Made by a program: the position numbers and the translations under genes | Shown here: one piece after another, positions 58,852-60,935 of the stretch | Numbering within the stretch: position 1 is the stretch's first letter | How the letters are laid out: every line of letters begins with the position of its first letter | DNA from: Onthophagus taurus | Taxonomy: Eukaryota; Arthropoda; Insecta; Coleoptera; Scarabaeidae | DNA: 64,000 bases | Assembly (NCBI RefSeq): GCF_036711975.1 | Contig: NC_091972.1 | Coordinates: 8,003,001-8,067,000 of the forward strand | Direction: 5' to 3' | Notes under the pieces: generated by a model | The model's input: the letters and a program-made list of their open reading frames with translations, nothing else | Told to the model about the DNA's origin: nothing | Databases searched by the model: none

Positions 58852-59357
58852 ATGAGTTTTAAAATTATTATTCTTTTGGGGTCTTTAGCCCTTATGGGCG
58901 TTTCAAACGCCGATGAGATTAAGATGGGTTCCTCAAAAGCTATTACATTCGATTCTTTGGCTGCACCAAGAGAGGTTTGATGTTTTCCATATTTATATAA
59001 ATTAATTAACTTAATGCTGAGGGTTCCAGCTGCTTTAACCCTTACAATACGACTTGAAAACATTATGGTTGGTGAACTACATTTATTAATTCTTTTTAGA
59101 CTCAAGTTCTTGGACATAATATGAATCCAGCAATGATAAATAACGTCCAAGCTGCCATTCAACTTAGTCTTACTCGTTATGATGATCCAATGGACCGAGT
59201 TTATTATATAGGATCAACTTTAGTTGGTCTATATCCGAACAAAAGGTGGAATGTAGTTGAACAATATGATGCCATACTTTATTATTATGTCGATTACGCA
59301 GAAGTTTTAGCTTATTACAACTCTAGAAACATTTTATTCTTAGTTTATACCAATTAG
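58852..59357 (+). CDS. Small secreted protein with an LC8 dynein light chain-like domain (126 aa, two exons)
   Basis: Exon 1 (58852-58974) ends at a GTTTGA donor, and exon 2 (59100-59357) follows a TTCTTTTTAG acceptor; both are phase 0. Residues 1-20 (MSFKIIILLGSLALMGVSNA) are a clear signal peptide. The mature part from residue 49 follows the LC8 pattern: M-x3-M, a helix (VQAAIQLSLTRY), D-x4-YI, then Y-PNK-RW-NVV, and the last strands VLAYYNSRNILFLVYTN against LC8's FIYFYLGQVAILLFKSG. The LC8 residues that bind partner peptides are largely changed. LC8 proteins are cytosolic, so a secreted relative would be unusual. AATAAA lies at 59445. The secretion call is strong; the LC8 call is inference from pattern. 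Confidence 0.75.
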
Positions 59358-59450: not shown

Positions 59451-59887
59451 TACTAAAATTAATCTGTCTTATTGTGAATTCATTTCAATATAACTCTAAA
59501 TATCTAAAAAAATAATATAAATTAGTACTTTTAACAACAATAAAAAATTTTAGAACCTTAAAATTTCAAACATCAAAAGCAACAATCATTTGACAATTCA
59601 ACAATGGCTCTATCTCTTATCGAAAACGTAAAATAATCGGAAATTATTAAATAAAATTATCTGCAATGATTAAAACGCAAAAAAATAGAATTCGACCTAA
59701 TAAATCATAATAAAACAATATAATTAATTTATAAAAAAAATAACTTAAACGGTAAAGTAAAAAACTTAAGTAAATTTTACAGGAATCTGTAATTCTACTT
59801 CAACTGTCATTGGTTAAACCGCATCTCGTCACAATCCCATTAATTTTCAAAAGAAATGGTACTTTTATTCGTTTTTTAATACACACA

Positions 59888-60343
59888 ATGAGTATTTATT
59901 ATTACTTAAACATTACATTGTTAGTATGTCGATCCGTAACTTAATAACATTGTCATTTTAATTGATAACATCACGCGTCAAAATCACGTTAGACATGTAA
60001 CCTAACCTCAAAATTTCTTTTCAGATCGCTTCATAACGAAGAATCTCGTGAAATAACACCGGCTTTCTTTAAAAAACATTTCGTCCAATCCATAAATCAG
60101 TTGTTTGGCGAAACCGTCTCTTCTTGCGGGATAGATCTACTAAAATATAATCCAAAAACTAAAGAGGCTATTATTCGTGTTCCTTCAAGTGAATACGTTA
60201 AAATTAGGGCGAGTTTAAGTTTGTGTGGAACGTACGAAGGAGTACCCTGTACTTATACAATCAAAAAAGCTGCAAGTTGTTTGAATTCTTTGATTGCGGA
60301 TAGTAGGAGATATAAGCATAGTACAAAAGATGTCGCACTGTAG
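59888..60343 (+). CDS. Rpp14: RPP14-like subunit of RNase P/MRP (about 128 aa, two exons)
   Basis: The main exon encodes [40 protein letters not shown] and a block with [19 protein letters not shown], matching human RPP14 (LFGEV...LPLDILTYEEKTLSAILRI...VKLWSSLTLLGSYKGKKC). RPP14 helps process tRNA and rRNA precursors in the nucleus. Exon 1 is probably 59888-59923 ([12 protein letters not shown], like human 'YHYMKVCLEF') with a GTATGT donor. An acceptor at 59992 (GTTAG) keeps the frame and gives 128 residues; human has 124. The better-looking acceptor at 60024 (TTTCTTTTCAG) would shift the frame and stop after 'IAS'. The stop at 60341-60343 lies inside the MIA40 start region, a 14-base overlap. 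Confidence 0.75.
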
Positions 60344-60810
60344 AAGAATGGGTCCTAATAAAAAGGATATTGTTATTTTTGCTACAGAAGAAGATCATAA
60401 AATTCCCAGTAAAGTTACACTTCCAGAAATCGAACAACAACCTGGTTTAATATTAGCTAACGGTGATATAAATTGGAATTGCCCTTGCCTCGGTGGCATG
60501 GCTACAGGACCTTGTGGAGTTGAATTTAGAAAAGCATTTAGTTGTTTTCATCATTCTACAGCAGAACCCAAAGGTAAAGAATTAAGAGATTAACCTAAAA
60601 ATGTGGTTTTGACAGGTTGAAAATAACCTCACAAACATTTTTCTTTTAGGAAGTGATTGTTTTGATCTTTTTAAAACAATGCAAACATGTATGAGGAAAT
60701 TTCCTGCTTTGTATAGTAAAGATATGGGTGAAGATGATGATTTACCTTTACCTGATGAAGCGACAAAAATAGAAAACGAACATATGAATAGTGGGAAAAA
60801 AACAAAATAA
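60330..60810 (+). CDS. Mia40: MIA40/CHCHD4 mitochondrial import oxidoreductase (134 aa, two exons)
   Basis: Exons 60330-60573 and 60650-60810 join across AAA-G|GTAAAG and TTTTAG|GA. The product carries the MIA40 redox site CPC at residues 51-53 ([16 protein letters not shown]) and two CX9C pairs, C62-C72 and C85-C95. MIA40 oxidises small cysteine proteins as they enter the intermembrane space. As in animal MIA40, there is no N-terminal presequence or membrane anchor. The start is set by homology: MSHCRR matches human MSYCRQ, and then [14 protein letters not shown] matches DRIIFVTKEDHETP. The acidic tail ([11 protein letters not shown]) is usual. The ATG at 60330 has A at -3 and overlaps the RPP14 stop in another frame. 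AATAAA is at 60930. Confidence 0.95.
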
Positions 60811-60929
60811 TTGGTTTAAGTTGAAAAATGATAGTAGATTTTATAGTCATTTCTGTTTTTCCGTTTAATACAAACTCCTTTGGTTAGTACTATTTGTTTT
60901 ATTTTATTGTATTTCTTGAGGAGTGGTCC

Positions 60930-60935
60930 AATAAA
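60930..60935 (+). terminator. Poly(A) signal of MIA40 (and probably the joint RPP14-MIA40 messenger)
   Basis: AATAAA lies 120 bases after the MIA40 stop. No signal was seen between RPP14 and MIA40, whose frames overlap. Confidence 0.55.

What the first reader, a model, noticed from the sequence alone, without database searches (positions are those of the whole stretch)
59888..60810. RPP14 and MIA40 overlap as a likely bicistronic messenger, with an ATG-free first frame
The RPP14 stop (60341-60343) lies 14 bases inside MIA40, whose start is fixed by its conserved MSHCRR N-terminus. From the exon start at 60025 to the MIA40 ATG at 60330 there is no ATG in any frame, where about five would be expected by chance at this composition. 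That would let scanning ribosomes that miss the RPP14 start reach MIA40 next. Vertebrate RPP14 is known to share a bicistronic messenger with a mitochondrial protein gene (HTD2). A pairing here with another mitochondrial protein, MIA40, would be a parallel case.
Basis: partly seen in the sequence, partly recalled or inferred. Interest (0 to 1): 0.75.

Follow-up and report, generated by a model that had tools for sequence, protein, structure and literature searches.

The report
Two insect genes sharing one messenger
In this insect the gene for an RNase P subunit (RPP14) and the gene for the mitochondrial import protein MIA40 overlap by 14 bases and very probably share one messenger, an arrangement already recorded in fruit flies and aphids; new here is a weak, doubled splice site that could choose between the two proteins.

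Summary
RPP14 (59888-59919 joined to 60025-60343) and MIA40 (60330-60573 joined to 60650-60810) are real and each found once in this genome. They overlap by 14 bases, with no ATG in any frame from 60025 to 60329. Chance gives about 4 ATGs (P 0.006 by dinucleotide shuffle, 0.009 by synonymous recoding); 0 of 55 control coding windows are ATG-free.

A shared messenger is very likely and already in print. Hayden and Bosco 2008 list Drosophila CG7950 as a CX9C-protein messenger with a 111-codon conserved upstream frame for a tRNA-processing subunit, and report the association in an aphid EST. AUG-poor first frames with leaky scanning are known from Drosophila stoned and Snapin.

What I add: the RPP14 frame needs donor GTTAGT at 59920, which scores below all 38 reference donors from this genome. 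A stronger donor, GTATGT, lies 4 bases on; using it truncates RPP14 to 15 codons, followed by 293 ATG-free bases to MIA40. Leaky scanning, delayed reinitiation and the alternative splice would all deliver ribosomes to MIA40.

No RNA data or second insect genome was available. The architecture is a new member of a known kind; the splice switch is an untested hypothesis.

The parts
59856..59879 (+). possible 7-codon upstream frame, ending 8 bases before the RPP14 ATG; relevant only if transcription starts upstream of it (start site unknown)
59888..59919 (+). RPP14 coding exon 1 ([10 protein letters not shown] + 2 bases of L), ATG at 59888
   Evidence: adding it raises the match to human p14 from 50.4 to 53 bits and Pfam Pop8 from 21.1 to 26.7 bits, still just below that family's cut-off of 27.2
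59920..60024 (+). intron that keeps the RPP14 frame (donor ATT|GTTAGT, acceptor TTTTCAG|A)
   Evidence: donor 3.5 bits, below 38 of 38 reference donors; acceptor 9.85 bits; frame
59924..60024 (+). alternative intron using the stronger tandem donor TTA|GTATGT; gives a 15-codon frame [15 protein letters not shown] ending at 60036
   Evidence: donor 5.5 bits, above 5 of 38 reference donors
60025..60343 (+). RPP14 coding exon 2, stop TAG 60341-60343
   Evidence: Pfam PF01900 7.5e-10; human RNase P p14, PDB 6ahr chain H, 3.1e-13
60025..60329 (+). 305-base stretch without ATG in any frame
60330..60343 (+). 14-base overlap of the RPP14 and MIA40 coding frames
60330..60573 (+). MIA40 coding exon 1, start ATG 60330
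   Evidence: human MIA40 PDB 2k3j, 1.5e-39, aligned from residue 1; CHCH domain PF06747 4.9e-8
60650..60810 (+). MIA40 coding exon 2 with stop
   Evidence: donor AAG|GTAAAG at 60574, acceptor AG 60648-60649
60357..60362 (+). AATAAA starting 14 bases after the end of the RPP14 stop, inside MIA40; possible polyadenylation signal for an RPP14-only messenger (0.32 expected by chance in this exon, so weak)
60930..60935 (+). AATAAA, likely polyadenylation signal of the shared messenger

Best explanation
One promoter upstream of 59888 makes one pre-mRNA holding both frames. When the weak donor at 59920 is used, the mRNA is bicistronic: ribosomes that start at 59888 make RPP14, and those that miss that ATG, or have just ended the 7-codon upstream frame if it is transcribed, meet no other ATG until MIA40 at 60330. 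When the donor 4 bases on (59924) is used, RPP14 is cut to 15 codons and the rest of its frame becomes a 293-base ATG-free leader, from which reinitiating or leaky ribosomes start MIA40. SHOWN: both genes, the overlap, the ATG-free run, the relative donor strengths by a matrix from this genome. REPORTED IN PRINT for other insects: both frames on one transcript. INFERRED: the shared transcript here, leaky scanning, reinitiation, the use of each donor.
For: Genes, each found once. The overlap leaves no spacer between the two frames. ATG-free run beyond chance. Prior record in Drosophila and in an aphid EST. Leaky scanning through AUG-poor first frames in Drosophila stoned and Snapin, as described in passages of PMC11291117 and PMC3372440. 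No excess RNA structure that would suggest an IRES (z +0.91). Tandem donor.
Against: No RNA, CAGE or ribosome-profiling data were available. The RPP14 ATG has a strong context, so leakage alone may be modest. The transcription start is unknown, so the 59856 frame may not be in the mRNA; a simple motif scan found no initiator-like match between 59587 and 59888 but two between 59920 and 60330, which if anything favours the internal-promoter rival. The donor matrix rests on 38 sites, 37 of them from one gene family and fixed by profile score rather than by RNA, and the three weakest score only 3.9 to 4.6 bits against 3.5 for 59920. Tandem donors of this type are mostly splicing noise in mammals (abstract of PMC4267661).
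Confidence: 0.62

Rival explanations
1. MIA40 is made mainly from its own monocistronic mRNA, started by a promoter inside the RPP14 intron or exon 2; the ATG-free run is then simply the 5' UTR of MIA40.
For: FlyBase curators state that alternative monocistronic transcripts of the 3' gene usually come from a downstream or external promoter, and that in only 45 of 159 dicistronic loci do both proteins appear to come exclusively from dicistronic transcripts. Initiator-like matches at 59953 and 60097, a TCT-like match at 60016 and a CCAAT at 60085, against no initiator-like match in the 300 bases before 59888. ATG avoidance would also be expected in a 5' UTR.
Against: Short motif matches of this kind are expected by chance and were not tested against a null. 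The published Drosophila and aphid association is on one transcript.
Confidence: 0.25
2. Ribosomes translate RPP14 and, after its stop at 60341-60343, slip back to restart at the overlapping MIA40 ATG (termination-reinitiation).
For: Start and stop lie within 14 bases in an overlap, a spacing that I recall from viral cases.
Against: RPP14 is 116 codons, far longer than the frames after which reinitiation is usual (a limit of 55 codons is mentioned in a passage of PMC4705651). This route would not need an ATG-free RPP14 frame, which is seen.
Confidence: 0.06
3. An internal ribosome entry site drives MIA40.
For: FlyBase curators say that use of an IRES may be common among Drosophila dicistronic genes.
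Against: The 336-base stretch 60025-60360 is no more structured than shuffles (z +0.91; 82 of 100 shuffles fold at least as well). An entry site would not need ATG avoidance.
Confidence: 0.05
4. The tandem donor is an artefact: an assembly error near 59920 or a misjudged exon 1 makes RPP14 look poorly spliced.
For: Only one assembly could be read; a single base would change the frame.
Against: The protein from donor 59920 aligns to human p14 across the junction, the only gap nearby being one residue three residues later. The other in-frame route found, 59924 to 59992, has a poor acceptor (-1.4 bits) and inserts 12 residues, and its match to p14 no longer reaches exon 1.
Confidence: 0.12

Closest known systems
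Drosophila CG7950 conserved-peptide uORF (Hayden and Bosco 2008, PMC2276209)
   Same: A 111-codon conserved upstream frame for a putative tRNA-processing subunit before a main frame with CX9C motifs; reported in an EST of the aphid Myzus persicae. Almost certainly the same pair (116-aa RPP14 here).
   Different: That paper does not, in the passages and sections I read, name the pair RPP14-MIA40, nor discuss ATG depletion or the splice site for it. That CG7950 is the fly MIA40 is my recall, not a tool result.
Drosophila stoned and Snapin dicistronic genes
   Same: Upstream frames deficient in internal AUGs; downstream frame reached by leaky scanning (as reported in passages of PMC11291117, and PMC3372440).
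   Different: There the first start is said to have a context away from consensus; here it is close to consensus. Different proteins.
Vertebrate RPP14-HTD2 bicistronic mRNA
   Same: RPP14 first, a mitochondrial protein second.
   Different: HTD2 is described as lying in the 3' UTR, downstream of RPP14; HTD2 is a fatty-acid synthesis dehydratase, not MIA40.
GYNNGY tandem 5' splice sites (PMC4267661)
   Same: Two donors 4 bases apart, alternative use shifts the frame.
   Different: There the alternative splicing is primarily noise, and most regulated cases may act through mRNA decay (abstract); here the shifted form would leave a second intact gene on the mRNA.

Membership tests
RPP14 (RNase P p14, Rpp14/Pop5 family) | Sequence match to PF01900 over its cut-off and to RNase P p14 | tested here: met
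   39.3 bits against a cut-off of 23; PDB 6ahr_H 3.1e-13, the only distinct chain sequence at E up to 1
MIA40/CHCHD4 | Redox CPC motif followed by twin CX9C | tested here: met
   Best match human MIA40 1.5e-39 aligned from residue 1. In the translation I read [24 protein letters not shown] and [11 protein letters not shown]. The motif definition is recalled.
Bicistronic (dicistronic) eukaryotic gene | One mature mRNA that holds both frames | not testable with these tools
   No RNA data for this species; reported in Drosophila and an aphid EST for the corresponding pair
Bicistronic gene read by leaky scanning (stoned type) | First frame depleted of ATG in all frames | tested here: met
   0 in 305 bases
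Bicistronic gene read by leaky scanning (stoned type) | Weak start context at the first frame | tested here: not met
   CACA ATG A agrees at -4, -3 and -1 with CAaaAUGg. So I do not file it as a stoned-type case; it may still work like one.
Bicistronic gene read by leaky scanning (stoned type) | Short 5' UTR | not testable with these tools
   Transcription start unknown
Regulated GYNNGY tandem donor | Two usable donors 4 bases apart of similar strength | tested here: inconclusive
   GTTAGT 3.5 bits and GTATGT 5.5 bits; use not shown

The most novel reading that the evidence does not exclude
The tandem donor GTTAGTATGT is a splice switch. A shift of 4 bases turns one pre-mRNA from a bicistronic RPP14-MIA40 messenger into a MIA40-only messenger whose leader is the unread, ATG-free RPP14 frame. 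This would set the balance between nuclear tRNA processing and mitochondrial import, with the frameshift being productive instead of leading to decay.
Probability: 0.18. Interest if true: 0.68.

Novelty: new member of a known kind. Interest (0 to 1): 0.42.

Why it matters
It adds what appears to be another insect to a gene pair already reported on one transcript in fly and aphid. If the pair is the same throughout, it has been kept across Neoptera. It is also a second case, in a different lineage and with a different partner, of RPP14 sharing a messenger with a mitochondrial protein. That makes it a fair test of whether such pairings coordinate tRNA processing with mitochondrial function or are neutral relics. 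The tandem donor gives a concrete, cheap prediction: RT-PCR across one 101/105-base intron.

Tried and rejected
Looked for a retrocopy of the shared messenger that would prove it spliced: the DNA search of the genome gave one other match, 63 bases at 98% identity on contig C2, from the 3' end of MIA40 only, so it says nothing about RPP14. Looked for relatives of MIA40 in viral contigs (3 stretches matched a pattern, 0 confirmed) and genome contigs (37 matched, 0 confirmed). No second insect was therefore available, and neither the overlap, the ATG-free run nor the tandem donor could be compared between species.

Considered an RNA structure (IRES) and thought it unlikely. Considered the 59924-to-59992 intron that would also keep the RPP14 frame: poor acceptor and shorter homology, though its Pfam PF01900 score (38.6 bits) is only slightly below that of the 59920 form (39.3; exon 2 alone 37.8). 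Considered intron retention: it adds ATGs at 59926 and 59995, so it is not an ATG-free route. The promoter motif scan was plain matching without a null and decides nothing.

First control run read minus-strand kinase loci in the wrong orientation. Its control-window figures, its codon-usage null and its antisense comparison are discarded and the first two replaced. Its within-gene codon permutation does not depend on those loci and is kept. In one search one of two loci with the same match length and nearly the same score (L021, L022; taken as duplicates, not aligned) was dropped before counting windows, so 29 of 30 exons were used; of 4166 overlapping windows in these, 0 are ATG-free and 99 are free off-frame.

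The donor matrix: 80 candidate introns, 51 with a margin of 3 bits or more, 37 of these kept for pyrimidine-rich acceptors and a gain of 18 bits or more, plus the MIA40 intron = 38. I set this second filter after seeing that the first set held likely false introns. With the looser 52 sites the order is the same but the contrast is smaller (59920 4.6 bits, above 10 or 11 of 52; 59924 5.6 bits, above 14 or 15 of 52). The reference sites were scored by the matrix made from them, which flatters them slightly. Among the 37 kept kinase introns, 10 have a second GT 4 bases on, and in 1 of the 10 it scores at least as well as the first.

In Drosophila, CG7950 is in a list of genes with splice junctions that change on insulin signalling (PMC2687788); which junction is not stated there, so I count it only as a lead.

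Papers: PMC2276209, passages, section 5 (part 1 of 2), section 12 and the outline with abstract; PMC4528330, PMC4705651, PMC5932603, PMC11291117, PMC3372440, PMC2687788, PMC3634774 and PMC12819141, passages only; PMC4267661, abstract, outline and passages. Others only in search listings. The original papers on stoned and Snapin and on HTD2 were not read.

Full report
WHAT IS THERE. The window lies on a 40.8-Mb contig of a 290.8-Mb genome. Of 51 introns recovered from its kinase genes, 44 are 45 to 83 bases long (some of the 51 are probably false). RPP14 is a two-exon gene, 59888-59919 and 60025-60343, 116 residues, matching Pfam PF01900 (7.5e-10) and human RNase P subunit p14 (PDB 6ahr chain H, 3.1e-13). 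MIA40 is a two-exon gene, 60330-60573 and 60650-60810, 134 residues, matching human MIA40 from residue 1 (1.5e-39). Each matched only this place in the genome, so whatever MIA40 this insect makes must come from here, as far as this assembly and search show.

THE OVERLAP AND THE ATG-FREE RUN. The RPP14 stop is 60341-60343 and the MIA40 ATG 60330-60332, an overlap of 14 bases. From 60025 to 60329 no frame holds an ATG. Expected are 6.0 by base composition and 4.1 by dinucleotides; 29 of 5000 dinucleotide shuffles have none. Because the stretch is coding, the fairer null keeps the protein: redrawing codons from kinase exons of the same genome gives 3.1 off-frame ATGs and none in 0.92% of 20000 draws; permuting the gene's own synonymous codons gives 2.7 and 0.98%. 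ATG is the most depleted of the 64 off-frame trinucleotides by this null, and the only one at or below 0.015 (3000 draws). In real coding DNA of this genome, 0 of 55 separate windows of the same length are ATG-free and 3 of 55 are free off-frame. The exon also codes for no Met, which alone has a chance of about 6% over 101 residues at the kinase Met rate. The feature was picked by eye, so about 1% is suggestive, not proof.

PRIOR RECORD. Hayden and Bosco (2008, PMC2276209) searched Drosophila transcripts against dipteran ESTs for conserved upstream frames. Their tables list CG7950: uORF of 111 codons, Ka/Ks 0.35 for the uORF and 0.04 for the main frame, and the association seen as far as an EST of the aphid Myzus persicae. 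They call the uORF a putative tRNA-processing subunit and note CX9C motifs in the main frame. This fits RPP14 and MIA40 in kind, order and length; that CG7950 is the fly MIA40 is my recall. A search for CG7950 in the paper library gives 3 papers; none of the passages on it that I read discusses how the second frame is translated. Their abstract also reports that such uORFs tend to go with mitochondrial proteins. FlyBase curators count 159 dicistronic pairs; of 36 genes in 18 pairs whose coding frames overlap, 26 are on polycistronic transcripts, and in loci with only polycistronic transcripts the spacing runs from -34 to 319 bases. So the arrangement is of a known kind.

HOW IT IS READ. In the mRNA spliced for RPP14, the next ATG after 59888 is MIA40's, 337 bases on. 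This is the layout reported for Drosophila stoned and Snapin, where AUG-poor first frames allow leaky scanning (as told in passages of PMC11291117, and PMC3372440). But RPP14's own start is in a good context, CACA ATG A, against CAaaAUGg in Drosophila, so leakage may be limited. If transcription starts upstream of 59856, a 7-codon frame ends 8 bases before the RPP14 ATG; ribosomes that finish it would probably be too close to restart there and would next meet MIA40. This is an inference from the general rules of reinitiation. No RNA structure stands out (z +0.91). A plain motif scan found no initiator-like match between 59587 and 59888 and two between 59920 and 60330; it was not tested against chance, but it does not help the shared-promoter reading.

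THE TANDEM DONOR. Only a donor at 59920 joins exon 1 to the strong acceptor at 60024 (9.85 bits) in the RPP14 frame. It reads ATT|GTTAGT. I built a donor matrix from introns of this genome: a profile of 23 kinase domains without internal stops was used to choose, among 20585 candidate splices in 46 kinase loci, those that best restore the domain. With 37 such introns plus MIA40's own, 59920 scores 3.5 bits, below all 38; T at +3 occurs in 1 of 38. Four bases on, TTA|GTATGT scores 5.5 bits, above 5 of 38. About 18% of all GTs on the + strand of the window score at least as well as 59920, and 7% as well as 59924. With a looser set of 52 sites the order holds but 59920 is then above 10 or 11 of them. 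Splicing at 59924 gives [15 protein letters not shown] and a stop ending at 60036, then 293 ATG-free bases to MIA40. By this measure the splice that makes RPP14 is the disfavoured one. Homology still supports it: exon 1 through 59920 extends the alignment to human p14 (53 bits, against 50.4 for exon 2 alone and 49.8 for the other in-frame route) and raises Pfam Pop8 (26.7, against 21.1 and 21.5 bits) and PF01900 a little (39.3, against 37.8 and 38.6 bits).

READING. A weak RPP14 splice, an ATG-free RPP14 body and an overlapping MIA40 start fit together: missing the RPP14 start, or splicing out of its frame, leads to MIA40; intron retention is the exception, since it adds two ATGs. I hold the shared messenger as about 0.9 likely, leaky scanning or reinitiation from it as the main source of MIA40 at about 0.6, and the tandem donor as a working switch at about 0.2. 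In mammals such tandem donors are mostly noise, about 20% of alternatively spliced ones in humans and 3% in mice being regulated (abstract of PMC4267661). In Drosophila CG7950 has a junction in an insulin-responsive splicing set, but which junction is not stated there.

LIMITS. No RNA, no second insect genome, one assembly, and a donor matrix mainly from one gene family.

Noticed in passing
L002 1501-1563 (G000:C2:23585362-23585424, minus): A 63-base, 98% identical copy of the MIA40 3' end (window 60783-60845: last codons and start of the 3' UTR) on another contig; too short to tell whether it came from an mRNA.
   Followed up: partly
60357-60362: AATAAA starting 14 bases after the RPP14 stop, inside MIA40 exon 1, followed by a T-rich stretch; could end an RPP14-only messenger (0.32 expected by chance in the exon).
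   Followed up: partly
58852-59357: Two open stretches on the + strand that look like a small secreted protein (signal-like N-terminus MSFKIIILLGSLALMG, by eye); no Pfam family at E below 0.2.
   Followed up: partly
59999-60008: AACCTAACCT (two CCTAA/CCT units) in the RPP14 intron, which also fits a branch-point sequence (CTAAC) about 20 bases before the acceptor; read by eye.
   Followed up: no
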